Below, one piece after another: positions 1-17,203 of a DNA stretch of 20,891 nucleotides. This DNA comes from a virus. Below the pieces are notes generated by a model, which saw nothing but the letters and a program-made list of their open reading frames with translations, ran no database searches and was not told the DNA's origin. The translations under genes and the position numbers were made by a program. The stretch spans positions 1 through 20,891 of IMG/VR virus record IMGVR_UViG_3300013132_000316. One strand, written 5' to 3'. Every line of letters begins with the position of its first letter. Position 1 is the first letter of the stretch.

Positions 1-33
1 ATCTGTTGTAATTCTGTCGCCATAATGTGTGCC

Positions 34-41
34 TTTAAATA
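34..41 (+). promoter_or_regulatory. Possible T4-type late promoter
   Basis: The octamer TTTAAATA matches the T4 late promoter consensus TATAAATA at 7 of 8 positions and lies about 70 bases before the start chosen for the first gene. In T4 this element is read by the phage sigma factor gp55. The match is short and AT-rich, so it could be chance. It is supported by similar octamers at several other gene starts in this window. Confidence 0.4.
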
Positions 42-109
42 TGCCTAGGGAGATATTTACGAGTTTTGGTCAGCTCCTGCCAATAAATAATCGCAAGGTC
101 ATAACGATA

Positions 110-361
110 ATGCAAAAACGCACCCGCAGCATACTGGAAGAACTGGACTCGATCTACGAAGAGCGATATGAGCAACGGGACCGCCGCTACATCATCGAGA
201 GCCGCGCCAGCAACGTGATAGCCAGTGCTGTGCGCCTGATCGAGCAGATCGAGTCGGCCTATCCCGCGGACCAGGCAGATAACCTTGTGCGTAAACTGCT
301 CAACGCCATACGCGCCAAAGATCCAGGCAAGTTCACCCGGACCGTTCGCCGTTCTGACTAG
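110..361 (+). CDS. Small conserved phage protein, function unknown
   Basis: This encodes a hydrophilic, charged protein of 83 residues. The frame stays open upstream to an ATG at 29, but the ATG at 110 was chosen because the sequence from there (MQKRTRSILEELDSIYEER) reads like the start of small uncharacterised proteins I recall from T4-like marine phages, and an AAGG lies about 10 bases upstream. The region between 29 and 110 also carries a late-promoter-like octamer, which fits non-coding leader. The sequence is rich in Arg and Glu and probably mostly helical, with no membrane segment or enzymatic motif. It sits 12 bases upstream of the SGNH-like gene and probably shares its transcript. No function is assigned. 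Confidence 0.75.
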   Translation: MQKRTRSILEELDSIYEERYEQRDRRYIIESRASNVIASAVRLIEQIESAYPADQADNLVRKLLNAIRAKDPGKFTRTVRRSD

Positions 362-1493: not shown

Positions 1494-3350
1494 ATGAAAA
1501 TCAACGAAGGCGGAAACATTTTTAAAGATGCCCAGGGCCGACCTCGCACTCAGCGCATCAATCTACAGGACATCGAACCAACCATAGACTGGCTGGAGCG
1601 CGTGACTGGCCTAGAACTGCGGACCATGGCCCTGGGATCAACGGGCCTCAAGCCCACTTCGGGCGATCTCGATCTGGCTGTGGATAGTACCAAGACCGAC
1701 AAAGCTGAATTCGCCCAGCGCCTGGCCGACTACGTGAGCCAGCACGGTCAGGATCCCGCGCAATGGGTCAAGAAGTCAGGCACCGCAGTGCATTTCCTCA
1801 CGCCCATCCGTGGCCGCGCAGACACCGGCTTCGTGCAGACCGATTTCATGTTCATGCCCAAGCCGGACTTTTCCAAGTTCATACTACGCCAAGATCCCGA
1901 GAGCGAGTACAAAGGTGCCACCCGCAACATCCTGATCAACTCCATGGCCAAATCAATGGGCTACAAGCTCAACCAGCTGGATGGCATCGCTGATCGCTCG
2001 ACCAATCGCTTGATAACAGACGATCCCGAACAGATAGCCCACTTGCTGCTAAATCCACGCGCTACCAGCCATGATCTGGGTTCGGTCGAGCGCATCATGG
2101 CCGCCCTAGCCCAGGATCCGAAACGGGAAGAAAAGCTGGCGGACTTCCGTGCCCATATGGAGCGAGAAGGCACGCCCATACAAGAGACCACTGCAGTCTA
2201 CACTGAATATTCGGAAGTGAACTGGATGGCCCGCTTGCGCGACAGGATAGTGAACCAGGGCATGGTGCCCATATTCGAAGCCGCACGAATCGAGCACCCA
2301 GAAGACATGGTGTTAGATGCTGGCAGCCGTGGACTGAAAGGCGCGCTGGATGGCATCTTGGCCGCTGCCCGGAATCCCGCTGCTACCACGGTCAAATGGG
2401 ACGGCAGACCCGCCATCATATTCGGTAGGAAACCCACGGGCGAGTTCGTGCTGACGGACAAGGCTGGTTTTGGTGCCCGGGGCTATGATGGCCTGGCCAC
2501 CAGCCCGGAACAGATAGAGCAGATCATGCGAGCGCGTGGTGGCGAGCGCGGTGAGCTAGTGAACTTGTACAAGGCCCTGTTTCCCGTGCTCCGCCGTGCC
2601 ACGCCCGATGACTTCCGCGGCTATGTGCAGGGCGATCTCTTGTTCACACAGCGACCACCGGTAGTGGACGGTGCTTACGAGTTCCAGCCCAACACGGTAA
2701 AATATCGCGTGCCTATAGACAGTGAGTTGGGCCAGCAAATAGGCGACAGCCAGATCGGCATCGTGGTGCACACGCAACTGGCCGAGCCAGGTGCCGCGCC
2801 TGAAGCGATCCGCGCCGCTGATCTCGCCCCAGTGCCAGGTCTCCTTATCCTGGATCCCAGCCTGCGCGAACCACGAGACGTGAAACTCAAACCACAGGTA
2901 GTCAAAGACGTCCAACGTATCATCACGCAGTATGGCCCAGCCATAGATCAGCTGTTCAATCCAGCGGAACTGCGCGCCCGCAAGATTACGGACTTCCCCC
3001 AGCTGATCAAGCAATACATGAACAGCAGGGTGCGCGCCCGCGATTACTCAAATCTCGTGGGCGGCTTTGGCGAGTGGGTGCAGGCCCGCGTGCCGGCCAA
3101 GGCACCTCGCATATTTGAGTGGGCCACGGCTAACCGGCAGGCAGTGGCCGCGGTGTTCCAGGCCTTCCTGGACATCAGCAGTCTCAAGAACGAGCTGGTG
3201 CGCCAGCTGGACAGCCAGGCCCAGGACGTGCAGGCTTCAGTGAACGATGAACCCGGACACGAAGGCTATGTGGGACAGGGCATGAAGTTCGTGGACAGGA
3301 TGCGCTTTTCAGCCGCAAACTTCGCGCGAAACAACCCAGAATTAGCCTAG
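1494..3350 (+). CDS. Two-domain protein: polymerase-beta-type nucleotidyltransferase plus KxDG ligase-like domain
   Basis: This 618-residue protein seems to join two nucleotide-transfer folds. The N-terminal part has the polymerase-beta superfamily signature: Gly48-Ser49, then Asp58 and Asp60 in GDLDLAV, with a possible third carboxylate at Asp117 (QTDFMF). The C-terminal half, from about residue 240, has KWDGRPAIIFG with Lys301 in the KxDG position, which is the nucleotide-accepting lysine in DNA/RNA ligases and capping enzymes. It continues with YVQGDLLF (Gly380-Asp381) and VKYR (Lys403-Arg405), which match ligase motifs III/IV and V in order. I recall ligase-like proteins with KWDG and QGDLLF in T4-like cyanophages, filed as an uncharacterised DUF6267-type family; the fused N-terminal domain is the unusual part. 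A repair, RNA-end or capping-type role is possible but the substrate is unknown. It is preceded by a late-type promoter. Domain calls are from motifs only. Confidence 0.7.
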   Translation: MKINEGGNIFKDAQGRPRTQRINLQDIEPTIDWLERVTGLELRTMALGSTGLKPTSGDLDLAVDSTKTDKAEFAQRLADYVSQHGQDPAQWVKKSGTAVHFLTPIRGRADTGFVQTDFMFMPKPDFSKFILRQDPESEYKGATRNILINSMAKSMGYKLNQLDGIADRSTNRLITDDPEQIAHLLLNPRATSHDLGSVERIMAALAQDPKREEKLADFRAHMEREGTPIQETTAVYTEYSEVNWMARLRDRIVNQGMVPIFEAARIEHPEDMVLDAGSRGLKGALDGILAAARNPAATTVKWDGRPAIIFGRKPTGEFVLTDKAGFGARGYDGLATSPEQIEQIMRARGGERGELVNLYKALFPVLRRATPDDFRGYVQGDLLFTQRPPVVDGAYEFQPNTVKYRVPIDSELGQQIGDSQIGIVVHTQLAEPGAAPEAIRAADLAPVPGLLILDPSLREPRDVKLKPQVVKDVQRIITQYGPAIDQLFNPAELRARKITDFPQLIKQYMNSRVRARDYSNLVGGFGEWVQARVPAKAPRIFEWATANRQAVAAVFQAFLDISSLKNELVRQLDSQAQDVQASVNDEPGHEGYVGQGMKFVDRMRFSAANFARNNPELA

Positions 3351-7881: not shown

Positions 7882-8271
7882 ATGGCCTATAGTGAAAAGG
7901 TTGTGGACCATTACGAAAATCCCCGTAATGTGGGGTCTTTTGACAAAGCAGATCAAGATATAGGCACCGGCATGGTGGGAGCACCGGCCTGCGGTGATGT
8001 CATGAAGCTGCAGATCAAGGTAAACGATCGAGGCATCATTGAGGATGCACGGTTCAAAACTTATGGCTGCGGTAGTGCGATCGCAAGTTCGTCGCTGGTG
8101 ACTGAATGGGTCAAAGGTAAATCTCTAGACGAAGCAGCGACCATCAAGAATACTGAAATAGCTCAAGAGCTAGCTCTGCCTCCCGTGAAAATCCATTGTT
8201 CGATACTTGCCGAAGATGCTATCAAAGCAGCTATTGATGACTATCGAAAAAAAAATGATATCACTCACTGA
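7882..8271 (+). CDS. iscU: IscU iron-sulfur cluster scaffold
   Basis: This 129-residue protein is full length for IscU. It keeps the cluster-binding Cys37, Cys63 and Cys106, Asp39 in CGD and His105, at the same numbering as Escherichia coli IscU, plus the LPPVK motif (about 99-103) that the chaperone HscA recognises. IscU holds nascent [2Fe-2S] clusters built with sulfur from the desulfurase IscS. No iscS, hscA, hscB or fdx gene lies nearby, so it would depend on host partners. A strong AGGAGG precedes the ATG. The end overlaps the iscA start. The residues argue for an active scaffold, not a decayed copy. Confidence 0.95.
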   Translation: MAYSEKVVDHYENPRNVGSFDKADQDIGTGMVGAPACGDVMKLQIKVNDRGIIEDARFKTYGCGSAIASSSLVTEWVKGKSLDEAATIKNTEIAQELALPPVKIHCSILAEDAIKAAIDDYRKKNDITH

Positions 8272-8584
8272 CACAGCGGCCGACAAGATCCGCAAGCAGA
8301 TCGAACGTCGCGGTCAGGGGCTAGGCATCCGTGTGGGTGTGCGCACTACTGGCTGCTCTGGCATGGCCTACGTGTTGGAGTTCGTGGACCAGGAGCAGGC
8401 ACAAGAACACTGTGTGGAGCATCATGATGTGAATGGTGTGCGGGTGTTCATGGACCCCAAGCATCGTCCCTATCTCTATGGCATGACCTTGGATTATCAA
8501 CGCAAGGGCCTGAACGAGGGTTTTGAGTTCATCAACCCCAACGAACGCGACCGTTGCGGATGTGGCGAAAGTTTCCGTGTCTGA
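8255..8584 (+). CDS. iscA: IscA/HesB A-type iron-sulfur carrier
   Basis: The product has 109 residues when started at the ATG at 8255 (MISLTDTAADKIRKQ), which aligns with the family N-terminus; upstream in-frame ATGs would add residues lying inside iscU. The three cluster cysteines are present: Cys34 in TTGCSGMAY and Cys101 and Cys103 in CGCGESF. A-type carriers bind and transfer iron-sulfur clusters to target enzymes. Overlap with iscU by 17 bases implies coupled translation. HesB/IscA-like genes are known in marine T4-like phages; the pairing with iscU and two radical SAM genes is the notable point here. IscA and the related ErpA or SufA cannot be separated by eye. Confidence 0.9.
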   Translation: MISLTDTAADKIRKQIERRGQGLGIRVGVRTTGCSGMAYVLEFVDQEQAQEHCVEHHDVNGVRVFMDPKHRPYLYGMTLDYQRKGLNEGFEFINPNERDRCGCGESFRV

Positions 8585-12699: not shown

Positions 12700-15015
12700 A
12701 TGACACAGATACAAGTACAAAAAAGAGATGGTACCAAAGAATCGCTAGACCTGGACAAGCTTCACCGGGTGGTGATCTGGGCCACACAAGGCATAACAGG
12801 CGTGAGCGCGAGCGAAGTTGAAATCAAGAGCCATCTACAGTTCTACAATGGTATAAAGACAGCAGACATCCAAGAGACACTGATCAAATCAGCAGCAGAT
12901 CTCATATCAGAAGAAACTCCCAACTATCAATACGTGGCCGGCCGCTTGATCTGCTATCACCTGCGCAAACAGGTCTACGGTGACTTCAAGCCCTGGCCTG
13001 TGATGGATCTGGTGAGGCAAAACGTGGCCGCTGGCTTCTATGATGAAGAACTGCTTACGGCCTACACGCAAGAAGAGTGGGATCGTATCAACGGGTTCAT
13101 CCGCCACGAGCGCGACGAAGACTTGACTTACGCTGCCATGGAGCAGTTCCGGGGCAAGTATCTCGTGCAGAATCGCGTGACTCGAGACATATATGAAACA
13201 CCGCAGGTGGCCTACGCACTGATAGCCGCTACCTTGTTCAGTGCCTATCCACGCGATAGCAGGATGATGTGGGTGCGAGACTACTACGACGCCATTTCAA
13301 CACATCAGATCAGCCTGCCCACTCCGGTCATGGCCGGCGTGCGCACCCCTCAACGACAGTTTTCATCATGCGTGCTGATCGAGACCGACGACAGCCTGGA
13401 TTCGATCAACGCCACGGCAAGTGCTATCGTGAAATACGTCAGCCAGAAGGCTGGCATAGGCATCGGTGCCAGTCGTATCCGCGCCATAGGCTCGCCCATA
13501 CGCAACGGAGATGCGTATCATACCGGGGTCATTCCTTTCTACAAGCTGTTCCAGGCAGCCACCCGCTCGTGCAGCCAAGGTGGTGTGCGCAATGGTGCTG
13601 CCACTCTTTATTATCCCATCTGGCATCTCGAAGTGGAAGACCTCCTAGTGCTCAAAAACAACAAAGGCACAGACGACAACAGGGTACGCCATATGGACTA
13701 TGGCGTACAATTCAACAAGGTCATGTACGAGCGTCTCCTGACCAATGGTGATATCACCCTGTTCTCGCCGCACGATGTGCCCGACTTGTGGGCGGCGTTT
13801 TATACTGATGTGGATCGCTTCCGTGAGCTGTATGAGCGTGCAGAAAAAAACACTAAACTGCGCAAGAAGACCATCAAAGCGCTGGAGCTTTTCACCAGAT
13901 TCATCGAAGAGCGCAAGAATACCGGCCGCGTGTATCTCATGAACGTGGATCACGCCAACAGCCATGGGGCGTTCCTGCCGGAACAGGCACCCATACGCCA
14001 GAGCAATCTCTGTTGCGAGATCAACCTACCCACCCGTCCATTAAATGATGTGAATGATCCAGAAGGAGAGATCGCCCTCTGTACCCTTTCGGCCATCAAC
14101 TGGGGCGTGTTCCGTGAGCCCCAAGACATGGAACGGGCCTGCACTTTGGCCGTGCGCGGTCTGGATGCCCTCTTATCATATCAGAACTATCCAATCCTGG
14201 CCGCGCAGAAGGCCACGGAGAACCGGCGGCCCTTGGGAGTGGGCATAATCAACTTGGCCTACTGGCTGGCCAAGAACGATCTGTCCTATTCAGACCCTCG
14301 CGCGCTGGCCGCGGTGGATCTCTGGGCGCAGCACTGGTCATACTATCTCATCCGTGCTTCGGTCACACTGGCCCGCGAGCGCGGTGCCTGCCCGCAGAGC
14401 GATCAAACACGCTATCATTCAGGTGTGCTGCCCGTGGACACCTACAAGCGCGAAGTGGATGAACTGGTTCCCCATGTGGATGCGGTAGATTGGTCAGGAC
14501 TCCGCGAGGATTTGAAACGCTATGGCATACGCAACAGCACCTTGATGGCTCTCATGCCCGCCGAGACGTCGGCACAGATATCCAATGCCACCAATGGTGT
14601 AGAGCCTCCCAGATCGTATGTGAGCGTGAAGCAGAGCAAGGACGGTGTGCTCAAACAGGTAGTGCCCGAATATCGTCGCCTCAAGAACAAGTATGAGCTG
14701 TTATGGAATCAGCGGAGCCCCGAAGGTTATCTCCGGATCATGGCCGTGCTGCAGAAATACATCGACCAAGGCATTTCCGTCAACACCAGCTACAATCCCC
14801 AACATTACGAAGATGAAAAAATCCCCATGTCGGAAATGATCAAGCACCTCGTTCTTGCCTACAAATACGGTCTAAAGCAACTTTATTATTGTAATGTCTA
14901 TGATGGCCAAGGCGAGATCGATCTCGATAGGCTGAACCAGAAGTCAGTCTTGATTGAAGCACCCAATACTAACCTGCAGGCGGACGATGCCGACTGCGAC
15001 AGCTGCAAAATATAG
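12700..15015 (+). CDS. nrdA: Class Ia ribonucleotide reductase large subunit
   Basis: NrdA reduces ribonucleoside diphosphates to deoxy forms. The 771-residue protein is full length. The N-terminal 90 residues keep the ATP-cone pattern (VQKRDGTKESLDLDKLHRVV), the site of overall dATP control. Active-site residues are visible: Cys224 (FSSCVL) and Cys461 (IALCTLS) form the redox pair, and Asn436, Cys438 and Glu440 in NLCCE are the catalytic set. The Tyr pair in LKQLYYCN serves radical transfer. The C-terminal DADCDSCKI has the shuttle cysteines two residues apart, closer than the CxxxxC of E. coli NrdA. It is followed by nrdB after 9 bases and glutaredoxin, a complete phage unit. Confidence 0.97.
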   Translation: MTQIQVQKRDGTKESLDLDKLHRVVIWATQGITGVSASEVEIKSHLQFYNGIKTADIQETLIKSAADLISEETPNYQYVAGRLICYHLRKQVYGDFKPWPVMDLVRQNVAAGFYDEELLTAYTQEEWDRINGFIRHERDEDLTYAAMEQFRGKYLVQNRVTRDIYETPQVAYALIAATLFSAYPRDSRMMWVRDYYDAISTHQISLPTPVMAGVRTPQRQFSSCVLIETDDSLDSINATASAIVKYVSQKAGIGIGASRIRAIGSPIRNGDAYHTGVIPFYKLFQAATRSCSQGGVRNGAATLYYPIWHLEVEDLLVLKNNKGTDDNRVRHMDYGVQFNKVMYERLLTNGDITLFSPHDVPDLWAAFYTDVDRFRELYERAEKNTKLRKKTIKALELFTRFIEERKNTGRVYLMNVDHANSHGAFLPEQAPIRQSNLCCEINLPTRPLNDVNDPEGEIALCTLSAINWGVFREPQDMERACTLAVRGLDALLSYQNYPILAAQKATENRRPLGVGIINLAYWLAKNDLSYSDPRALAAVDLWAQHWSYYLIRASVTLARERGACPQSDQTRYHSGVLPVDTYKREVDELVPHVDAVDWSGLREDLKRYGIRNSTLMALMPAETSAQISNATNGVEPPRSYVSVKQSKDGVLKQVVPEYRRLKNKYELLWNQRSPEGYLRIMAVLQKYIDQGISVNTSYNPQHYEDEKIPMSEMIKHLVLAYKYGLKQLYYCNVYDGQGEIDLDRLNQKSVLIEAPNTNLQADDADCDSCKI

Positions 15016-15024
15016 CGAGGCCAT

Positions 15025-16152
15025 ATGAGCGTATTGAATCTAAAAAGAAATCGAGATCACACCACCAGCCTGGCCTTCCTGGATCCGCAAGGCGCCATAG
15101 GCATGCAGCGGTATGATACCCTGAAATACCGGCAGTTTGACAAGCTGACCGACAAACAATTGGGATTCTTCTGGAGACCGGAAGAGGTCGACGTGCTCCG
15201 CGATGCCAAGGACTTCAAGGATCTCACCCCTCACGAGCAGCACATTTTCACATCTAACCTCAAGCGTCAGATCCTGCTGGACAGCGTGCAGGGCCGATCA
15301 CCTAATCTGGCGTTCCTGCCCATCACCACCCTGCCCGAGATCGAGACCTGGATAGAGACCTGGGCATTCTCGGAAACTATCCACAGCCGATCCTACACGC
15401 ACATCATCCGCAATGTCTATTCAGATCCCAGCCGGGTGTTCGACAGCATGCTAGACGTGGAAGAGATCATCTCCTGCGCGCGAGACATCACGCAATACTA
15501 TGATGATCTGGTCTCCTACAGCCAGTGGTATCAGCTGTTGGGAGCAGGATCCCATACAGTAAATGGAAAGACCATAGAAATAACAGAACATGAACTCAAG
15601 AAAAAATTGTGGCTCGCCCTCGCCAGTGTCAACGTTCTCGAGGGCATCCGGTTCTATGTTTCATTCGCGTGCTCCTGGGCGTTCGCAGAGCTCAAGAAGA
15701 TGGAGGGCAACGCAAAGATTATTAAATTTATCGCCAGAGATGAGAACGTGCATCTGGCCTTCACACAGCAGATGCTGAAGATCCTGCCCCAGGATGATCC
15801 TGTGTTCGCGCAGATACGCCAGGACACGCAGAGTGAGGTGGTGGCCATGTATGATCTGGCCATCCAGCAGGAAAAAGACTGGGCGCGTTATCTGTTCCGG
15901 GATGGTAGCATGATCGGACTGAACGAGCAATTGCTGAGTGATTATGTGGAATGGATCGGACACAAAAGGATGACCGCTATCGGTCTGCCCACCCAGCACC
16001 GCGGTGGATCAAATCCCCTGCCCTGGACACAGAAATGGATCGCGGGCGGTGAAGTGCAGGTGGCACCACAGGAGACCGAAATCTCATCCTACGTTATCGG
16101 TGGCACCCGGCAAGACGTAGACGCCACCACCCTATCAGGACTATCATTATGA
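15025..16152 (+). CDS. nrdB: Class Ia ribonucleotide reductase small subunit
   Basis: NrdB holds the di-iron centre and tyrosyl radical that start catalysis in NrdA. The 375-residue protein keeps every ligand at E. coli numbering plus two: Asp86, Glu117, His120, Glu206, Glu240 and His243, with radical Tyr124 in SRSYTH. The tail GTRQDVDATTLSGLSL is consistent with the flexible NrdA-binding C-terminus. GAGG precedes the ATG. No intein or intron interrupts it, although such insertions are common in phage nrd genes. Its stop overlaps the glutaredoxin start. Confidence 0.97.
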   Translation: MSVLNLKRNRDHTTSLAFLDPQGAIGMQRYDTLKYRQFDKLTDKQLGFFWRPEEVDVLRDAKDFKDLTPHEQHIFTSNLKRQILLDSVQGRSPNLAFLPITTLPEIETWIETWAFSETIHSRSYTHIIRNVYSDPSRVFDSMLDVEEIISCARDITQYYDDLVSYSQWYQLLGAGSHTVNGKTIEITEHELKKKLWLALASVNVLEGIRFYVSFACSWAFAELKKMEGNAKIIKFIARDENVHLAFTQQMLKILPQDDPVFAQIRQDTQSEVVAMYDLAIQQEKDWARYLFRDGSMIGLNEQLLSDYVEWIGHKRMTAIGLPTQHRGGSNPLPWTQKWIAGGEVQVAPQETEISSYVIGGTRQDVDATTLSGLSL

Positions 16153-16427
16153 TGCTGACCATTTACAGCAAGACCGTTTGCCCCTACTGCGTGAACGCCA
16201 AGAACTATCTCAAGAGCAAGAACATCGCGTTCCGAGAAGTCAACATAGAAGAAAACGACGATGGGCGTGTGTTCATGCAAGCCCAAGGACACAGATCAGT
16301 TCCCCAGATCTACCTCAACGGTCGGTTATTTGTCGAAGGTGGCTGGGCTGGTTTAAGTAAGATGAGCGCGGAAGAGATCATCAACGAAATAGAACTGCGC
16401 ACAGCCTTACTAAACCAGAGCCTATGA
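16149..16427 (+). CDS. Glutaredoxin
   Basis: This 92-residue protein has the glutaredoxin active site CPYC (residues 11-14) in YSKTVCPYCVNAKNYL, the cis-Pro segment HRSVPQIYLNG and the GG motif EGGWAGL. It most likely returns electrons to NrdA, as phage glutaredoxins beside nrdAB do. It overlaps the nrdB stop as ATGA; the second ATG at 16152 is an equally possible start. Named generically because grxC and phage nrdC types cannot be told apart by eye. Confidence 0.93.
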   Translation: MMLTIYSKTVCPYCVNAKNYLKSKNIAFREVNIEENDDGRVFMQAQGHRSVPQIYLNGRLFVEGGWAGLSKMSAEEIINEIELRTALLNQSL

Positions 16428-16723: not shown

Positions 16724-16938
16724 TGCCCCATAGATTCGTGGTGCGCAAGGGCATCCACTTGCACACTTTCGAGCGCTATGAGGACATCCCAGATGATTTC
16801 GATCACTTGATCGAGTTCCTGCCAGAGATACCTCCCCCGCCACATACAGACCAACAGCATGAAGAGATCGAGGCATGGGAGTCTCGATTCAAAAGACTGA
16901 TGGAGATAGAGCATGCCCGCAGCCGCAAGACAAGGTGA
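16723..16938 (+). CDS. Small conserved phage protein of unknown function
   Basis: The frame is open upstream, but the ATG at 16723 overlaps the previous stop as TAATG and was chosen. The 71-residue product contains LIEFLPEIPPPPHTDQQHEE (about residues 23-42) then a charged helix ending RSRKTR. I recall this Pro-rich pattern from T4-like phages. No function is assigned. It overlaps the PAAR gene by 26 bases. Confidence 0.75.
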   Translation: MPHRFVVRKGIHLHTFERYEDIPDDFDHLIEFLPEIPPPPHTDQQHEEIEAWESRFKRLMEIEHARSRKTR

Positions 16939-17203
16939 TTCAGGAGTGGTACACTGCAGTGGTTTCACCATCGCGAGTGGTAGTGGTGATGTGTTGATCA
17001 ACGGCCGCGCCGCTGCTCGGGTTGGAGATACATCAACATCACATAAAAAACCCGGTGGCCGGCGTTGTGGCACGCACTCCGCATCCATAAGTTCAGGCAG
17101 CAGCACAGTGACTATCAATGGTCGACCGGCCGCGAGAGTGGGCGATTCCTTGGCAGGATGTACCTCTATCGCTTCCGGCAGTGGTGATGTGATCATAGGA
17201 TAA
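16913..17203 (+). CDS. PAAR spike-tip protein
   Basis: This 96-residue protein is a typical PAAR protein: it starts MPAAARQGDSGVVHCSG and has two copies of a NGRxAARVGD repeat (about residues 30-39 and 70-79) with a Gly/Ser-rich third strand at the end. PAAR proteins sharpen the tip of the central spike of contractile tails and bind a metal through His and Cys; candidates are His14, His44, Cys52 and His55. In T4 the equivalent is gp5.4. GGAGA precedes the ATG. It shows that the window carries a contractile-tail device. Confidence 0.93.
   Translation: MPAAARQGDSGVVHCSGFTIASGSGDVLINGRAAARVGDTSTSHKKPGGRRCGTHSASISSGSSTVTINGRPAARVGDSLAGCTSIASGSGDVIIG

What the first reader, a model, noticed from the sequence alone, without database searches (positions are those of the whole stretch)
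1494..3350. Fusion of a polymerase-beta-type nucleotidyltransferase and a KxDG ligase-like domain
Seen: GS...DLD at residues 48-60 and, 240 residues later, KWDG (Lys301), QGDLL (380) and VKYR (403) in ligase motif order. Known: each signature belongs to a separate nucleotide-transfer fold. Inference: one protein could activate an end and join or tag it, for example an RNA or DNA repair or end-modification activity of the phage.
Basis: partly seen in the sequence, partly recalled or inferred. Interest (0 to 1): 0.7.

Follow-up and report, generated by a model that had tools for sequence, protein, structure and literature searches.

The report
Phage polymerase-X and ligase-like fusion protein
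This phage gene joins in one protein a small polymerase-X-type nucleotide-adding domain and a ligase-type end-joining domain; the same two parts travel together, fused or as touching genes, through many phages, so they probably form a so far untested nucleic-acid end-repair tool.

Summary
The ORF at 1494-3350 (618 aa) carries GS...DLD, KWDG and QGDLL, conserved in 73 full-length viral relatives. The fourth motif, VKYR, is not a ligase motif: Lys403 is not conserved. The likely ligase motifs IV and V are at the C-terminus (E590-G591, K598...R602), invariant even in distant cyanophage DUF6267 proteins. The AlphaFold model has two well-predicted domains. In the PDB search all 50 listed matches are family-X polymerases. 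The C-terminal half (Pfam DUF6267) alone returns almost only DNA and RNA ligases, each weakly, and matches by profile an RNA-ligase-like phage family (E=1.7e-8). A scan seeded on the first domain gave 80 loci: 73 have DUF6267 as partner (13 fused, 56 adjacent, 4 nearby), 2 have the RNA-ligase-like gene, 5 show none. Fused and separate forms interchanged at least twice. Some fusions add a third, HIGH-type, nucleotidyltransferase. Most large relatives also encode an ordinary DNA ligase, so this is a specialised extra. Best reading: an 'add nucleotides, then seal' end-repair enzyme, slightly more likely for RNA than DNA; activity is untested. Precedents in concept exist (PgVPolX; RlaP with RNA ligase), hence a new variant of a known kind.

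The parts
1494..3350 (+). Whole gene, 618 aa: Pol-X-like nucleotidyltransferase fused to DUF6267 ligase-like domain
1494..2183 (+). N-terminal Pol-X-like palm and thumb, residues about 1-230
   Evidence: All 50 listed PDB fold matches are family-X polymerases, best E=4.5e-4, prob 1.00; relatives exist as stand-alone genes
1635..1673 (+). GS...D58-L-D60, metal-binding motif
   Evidence: G48, D58, D60 73/73, S49 70/73; G48, G57, D58, D60 invariant in 40 diverse fused and stand-alone members
1842..1844 (+). D117, third carboxylate
   Evidence: 73/73; invariant in A6
2190..2285 (+). Disordered linker, residues 233-264
   Evidence: pLDDT below 50
2289..3326 (+). DUF6267 ligase-like domain, residues 266-611
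   Evidence: PF19782 E=1.7e-42; profile match to RNA-ligase-like family; fold search
2394..2405 (+). Motif I K301-W-D-G304, predicted nucleotidyl-lysine
   Evidence: invariant
2628..2642 (+). Motif III candidate QGDLL, acidic residue D381
   Evidence: G380, D381, L382 invariant
2688..2705 (+).
   Evidence: P399, N400, Y404 invariant; K403 37/73; aligned
2889..3212 (+). Helical insertion between motifs III and IV, residues 466-573
   Evidence: predicted secondary structure
3261..3272 (+). Motif IV candidate E590-G-Y-V593
   Evidence: E590, G591, V593 invariant
3285..3299 (+). Motif V candidate K598-F-V-D-R602
   Evidence: K598, V600, R602 invariant

Best explanation
A bifunctional polynucleotide end-repair enzyme. 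The N-terminal domain is a minimal family-X-polymerase-like palm and thumb (D58, D60, D117) that adds one or a few nucleotides to a 3'-OH. The C-terminal DUF6267 domain is a covalent nucleotidyltransferase of the DNA/RNA-ligase kind: K301 takes up AMP, passes it to a 5'-phosphate, and the ends are sealed. Shown: motifs, predicted folds, conservation, persistent fusion or operon pairing. Inferred: catalysis, ATP as donor, the order add-then-seal, and the substrate. Preferred substrate is RNA (for example tRNA cut by host nucleases), about 55%; nicked or gapped DNA about 35%; another nucleotide transfer about 10%.
For: Pol-X fold with the three carboxylates invariant; DUF6267 half with invariant KWDG, GDL, EG and K...R in ligase order, profile match to an RNA-ligase-like family at E=1.7e-8 whose members weakly match Pfam RNA_ligase, and a PDB list of about 46 of 50 ligase-superfamily or NHEJ ligation-complex chains. 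Partners in 75 of 80 sampled loci, mostly overlapping genes; fused/separate state changed at least twice on the tree. Six of eight large DUF6267-bearing records carry a separate ATP DNA ligase, so this is not the replicative ligase.
Against: No single PDB match for the ligase half is significant (best E=0.086); motif III has Asp where ligases usually have Glu, no OB fold is present, and motif V is K-x-x-x-R instead of K-x-K. No sequence-level PDB match for either half. Closeness of motifs I and IV/V in the model was not measured. The RNA preference is weak: helicase, primase or UvsX neighbours in several phages point as much to DNA.
Confidence: 0.6

Rival explanations
1. DNA gap-filling and nick-sealing, like PgVPolX: the Pol-X half fills a short gap and the ligase half seals the DNA nick, perhaps on the incoming genome if the protein is packaged.
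For: Family-X polymerases are DNA repair enzymes, and a Pol X-ligase fusion is biochemically proven in an algal virus (PMC5537341). Relatives lie near DnaB-like helicase, primase or UvsX genes. The PA5oct relative is recorded as a virion protein.
Against: Most large relatives already encode an ordinary DNA ligase; the partner family resembles RNA ligases more; the 8-kDa and fingers domains are missing, though ASFV PolX also lacks them.
Confidence: 0.3
2. The ligase-like half is not a sealing enzyme but transfers a nucleotide to another acceptor (a cap, a cofactor or a protein), working with the Pol-X-like and HIGH-type nucleotidyltransferase partners.
For: Fusion or adjacency with a HIGH-type (NMN-adenylyltransferase-like) domain in cyanophages and in L290, L291, L320, L308; no OB fold; capping enzymes belong to the same superfamily (general knowledge).
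Against: The best profile relatives are RNA-ligase-like and the PDB list is ligases; the window protein itself has no HIGH-type domain.
Confidence: 0.1
3. A structural or regulatory virion protein in which the enzyme folds are relics.
For: In the window's lineage it lies in a conserved order beside genes with weak virion-protein matches; the PA5oct relative is a recorded virion protein.
Against: Catalytic-type residues of both halves are invariant across sequences that differ at half or more of their positions.
Confidence: 0.05

Closest known systems
PgVPolX of Phaeocystis globosa virus (PMC5537341)
   Same: Pol-X core at the N-terminus, ligase with a KxDG lysine at the C-terminus, one viral protein
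   Different: PgVPolX has homology to Pol beta at 30% identity, an 8-kDa lyase domain and a full NAD+-dependent DNA ligase; here the palm and thumb are minimal and the ligase half is DUF6267; PF19782 is the match and DNA_ligase_aden is not
RlaP (PF10127) working with RNA ligases in phages (described in PMC7824862)
   Same: Pol-beta-type nucleotidyltransferase paired with an RNA-ligase-type enzyme in phages
   Different: No PF10127 match in 40 members; fold matches are family X; Atu_ph07 has an RlaP elsewhere in its genome
DUF6267 (PF19782) of T4-like cyanophages
   Same: The C-terminal half is a member, 59 of 59 aligned sequences match
   Different: The cyanophage genes examined lack the Pol-X part and are next to, or grouped with, a HIGH-type nucleotidyltransferase
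RNA-ligase-like genes of Atu_ph07 and Phosso next to a stand-alone Pol-X-like gene
   Same: Same partner domain, same ligase motif order
   Different: Separate genes with the ligase gene first; different ligase subfamily

Membership tests
DUF6267 (PF19782) | Match above the curated cut-off | tested here: met
   146.5 bits against cut-off 27
Family-X polymerase | Pol-X palm and thumb fold | tested here: met
   All 50 listed PDB matches are family X, best E=4.5e-4, prob 1.00
Family-X polymerase | Three catalytic carboxylates | tested here: met
   D58, D60, D117 invariant
Family-X polymerase | Pfam family-X profile above cut-off | tested here: not met
   Only weak thumb matches in 4 of 59 and 4 of 40 members
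Family-X polymerase | 8-kDa and fingers domains | tested here: not met
   Only about 47 residues with one long helix precede the GS motif; ASFV PolX also lacks them (PMC5537341)
Covalent nucleotidyltransferase (DNA/RNA ligase) superfamily | Motif I KxDG, motif IV EG and motif V Lys in order | tested here: met
   K301-D303-G304, E590-G591 and K598 invariant
Covalent nucleotidyltransferase (DNA/RNA ligase) superfamily | Acidic motif III residue, usually Glu | tested here: inconclusive
   Invariant D381 in GDL; Glu in the RNA-ligase-like relatives
Covalent nucleotidyltransferase (DNA/RNA ligase) superfamily | Adenylation-domain fold | tested here: inconclusive
   PDB list almost all ligases but best E=0.086, prob 0.57; profile match E=1.7e-8 to the RNA-ligase-like family
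DNA ligase with OB fold | C-terminal OB fold with motif VI | tested here: not met
   Chain ends about 16 residues after motif V
RlaP | PF10127 match | tested here: not met
   Absent from the families listed for 40 members (25 of 26 shown); no match in relatives' genomes at this gene
PgVPolX-type fusion | NAD+-dependent DNA ligase domain (PF01653) | tested here: not met
   Not among matches of any member; no match in the DUF6267-bearing records
End-repair enzyme (add and seal) | Nucleotide addition and lysine-AMP with sealing | not testable with these tools
   Needs biochemistry

The most novel reading that the evidence does not exclude
A widespread, unnamed phage repair module: a minimal Pol-X-like nucleotidyltransferase family coupled to a new ligase family (DUF6267), sometimes with a third HIGH-type nucleotidyltransferase in the same chain, which repairs cut RNA or DNA ends against host defence and may enter the cell with the virion.
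Probability: 0.4. Interest if true: 0.8.

Novelty: new variant of a known kind. Interest (0 to 1): 0.58.

Why it matters
DUF6267 occurs in more than two hundred annotated phage records (mostly cyanophages) and in hundreds of uncultured viral contigs with no assigned function. Recognising it as a ligase-type domain coupled to a Pol-X-like partner makes its function testable, names the residues to mutate (D58, D60, D117; K301, D381, E590, K598), and points to a repair or counter-defence step that exists beside the phages' ordinary DNA ligase.

Tried and rejected
VKYR as ligase motif V: rejected, K403 not conserved. RlaP membership: no PF10127 match. Replicative DNA ligase role: 6 of 8 large DUF6267-bearing records have a separate ATP DNA ligase, and Atu_ph07 and L167 an NAD+ ligase. 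Cellular relatives: a genome-contig scan matched 22 stretches by pattern but none encodes a relative; it reaches only sequences holding the two patterns used. Sequence-profile searches of PDB chains with A1, A3, A5 and A6 gave nothing meaningful. No paper held mentions DUF6267; the primary RlaP paper is not held. Not done: mapping of the Pol-X sugar-selecting residues and the distance of motif IV/V from K301, because model coordinates were not at hand; so no claim on ribo- versus deoxynucleotide choice. No tRNA gene in the window.

Full report
Observation. The open frame 1494-3350 (+) encodes 618 residues. The four motifs are present as described. Among 73 full-length sequences (relatives at 51-93% identity) G48, D58, D60, D117, K301, D303, G304 and G380-D381-L382 are the same in all and S49 in 70, but K403 of VKYR is not conserved. 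Pfam places residues 266-611 in DUF6267, E=1.7e-42. Adding distant cyanophage DUF6267 proteins leaves 38 invariant positions, among them K301, D303, G304, G380, D381, E590, G591, K598 and R602. The printed rows show KWDG, GDL, EG[YFW]V and K-x-V-[DN]-R in order in nearly all sequences. The likely ligase motifs IV and V therefore lie at the C-terminus.

N-terminal half. AlphaFold2 on a 59-sequence alignment gave mean pLDDT 87, with a poorly predicted linker at 233-264. The pTM of the whole chain is 0.56, so the relative placement of the two domains is not to be trusted. Foldseek against the PDB listed 50 structures, all family-X polymerases (Pol lambda, beta, mu, TdT); best E=4.5e-4, probability 1.00. 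Weak Pfam matches to the Pol beta thumb occur in 4 of 59 and 4 of 40 members (best 0.017 and 0.0059). The 8-kDa and fingers parts are absent, as PMC5537341 reports for ASFV PolX. A sequence profile finds no PDB family-X protein, so 'Pol-X-like' is the right wording.

C-terminal half. Modelled alone it has pLDDT 91 and pTM 0.86. No single PDB match is significant (best E=0.086), but about 46 of the 50 listed chains are DNA ligases I, III, IV, archaeal DNA and RNA ligases, T4 RNA ligase 1, LigD, tRNA ligase, RNA-editing ligase or NHEJ ligation complexes. A profile-profile comparison with an RNA-ligase-like phage family gives probability 95% and E=1.7e-8 and aligns KWDG with KLDG, PNTVxY with PNTIxY and EGYV...KFVDR with EGFV...KIVNR. 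Members of that family weakly match Pfam RNA_ligase (0.00095 to 0.085). There is no OB fold, and a helical insertion separates motif III from motif IV.

The halves belong together. Stand-alone relatives of the N-terminal half occur in jumbo phages Atu_ph07, Phosso and the PA5oct group. In Atu_ph07, Phosso and L167 the preceding, overlapping gene is the RNA-ligase-like one; in PA5oct it lies three genes upstream. A scan with an alignment of this domain, led by the Atu_ph07 stand-alone copy, kept 80 loci: 13 fused to DUF6267, 56 with DUF6267 adjacent (36 with a 4-base overlap), 4 with it about 0.9 kb downstream, 2 with the RNA-ligase-like gene upstream, and 5 with none seen. The query alignment held some fused members and only the best matches were kept, so the proportions describe this sample. 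On a tree of the domain the fused/separate label needs five changes, two of them forced by starred branches. Three fused proteins (L290, L291, L320) run on into a CTP_transf_like (HIGH-type) domain, and the cyanophage DUF6267 genes examined lie next to such a gene or near one.

What it probably does. Invariant active-site-type residues in both halves, persistent pairing and the chemistry of the two superfamilies argue for nucleotide addition followed by sealing. Six of eight large DUF6267-bearing records also hold an ordinary ATP-dependent DNA ligase, and Atu_ph07 and L167 an NAD+ ligase, so the module is a specialised extra. RNA is slightly favoured by the RNA-ligase-like partner, the missing DNA-binding domains and the published RlaP principle (PMC7824862). 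DNA is favoured by the family-X fold and by helicase, primase or UvsX neighbours. In the window's lineage the gene lies in a conserved order beside genes with weak virion-protein matches, and the PA5oct relative is recorded as a virion protein by mass spectrometry; packaging is possible but untested here.

Known relatives in concept. PgVPolX of an algal virus is a biochemically proven Pol X-NAD+ ligase fusion (PMC5537341). RlaP with RNA ligases is the nearest phage principle, but PF10127 is not matched and Atu_ph07 carries an RlaP elsewhere. No paper in the held library mentions DUF6267. The Pol-X-like domain matched no Pfam family above cut-off, and no PHROG or NCBIfam family among those proteins tested. 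I rate it a new variant of a known kind.

Limits. All functional statements are predictions. The ligase fold rests on several weak to moderate lines. Relatives were sampled as best matches, and most large records are of unknown completeness.

Noticed in passing
L291:2078-5362, L320:3944-7759, L290:3817-6006: Fusions of three nucleotide-transfer folds in one chain: Pol-X-like, DUF6267 ligase-like and HIGH-type nucleotidyltransferase with an HxGH motif.
   Followed up: partly
L083:5893-6606: The stand-alone Pol-X-like gene of Pseudomonas phage PA5oct (EST35_0231) is annotated as a structural protein found by ESI-MS/MS, suggesting virion packaging of this family.
   Followed up: no
window 7882-8271 and 8246-8584: Phage-encoded IscU/NifU-like scaffold (PF01592, 1.8e-54) and IscA-like protein (PF01521, 7.9e-18) side by side, between two radical SAM genes.
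   Followed up: no
window 29-361: A 110-aa protein of unknown function lies upstream of the fusion gene in most loci with flank (108 loci) at 65-90% identity in those listed; the 359-aa ORF 374-1453 between them is nearly unique to the window.
   Followed up: no
window 12700-16427: Ribonucleotide reductase large and small subunits followed by a glutaredoxin.
   Followed up: no
window 16913-17203: PAAR-motif protein, probably a tail spike tip.
   Followed up: no
Atu_ph07 (G008) 154923-155339, 66597-67055, 217410-217973: Besides the Pol-X-like/RNA-ligase-like pair this phage carries a RlaP, a Pfam-grade RNA ligase and an NAD+ DNA ligase elsewhere, i.e. several ligation systems in one genome.
   Followed up: no
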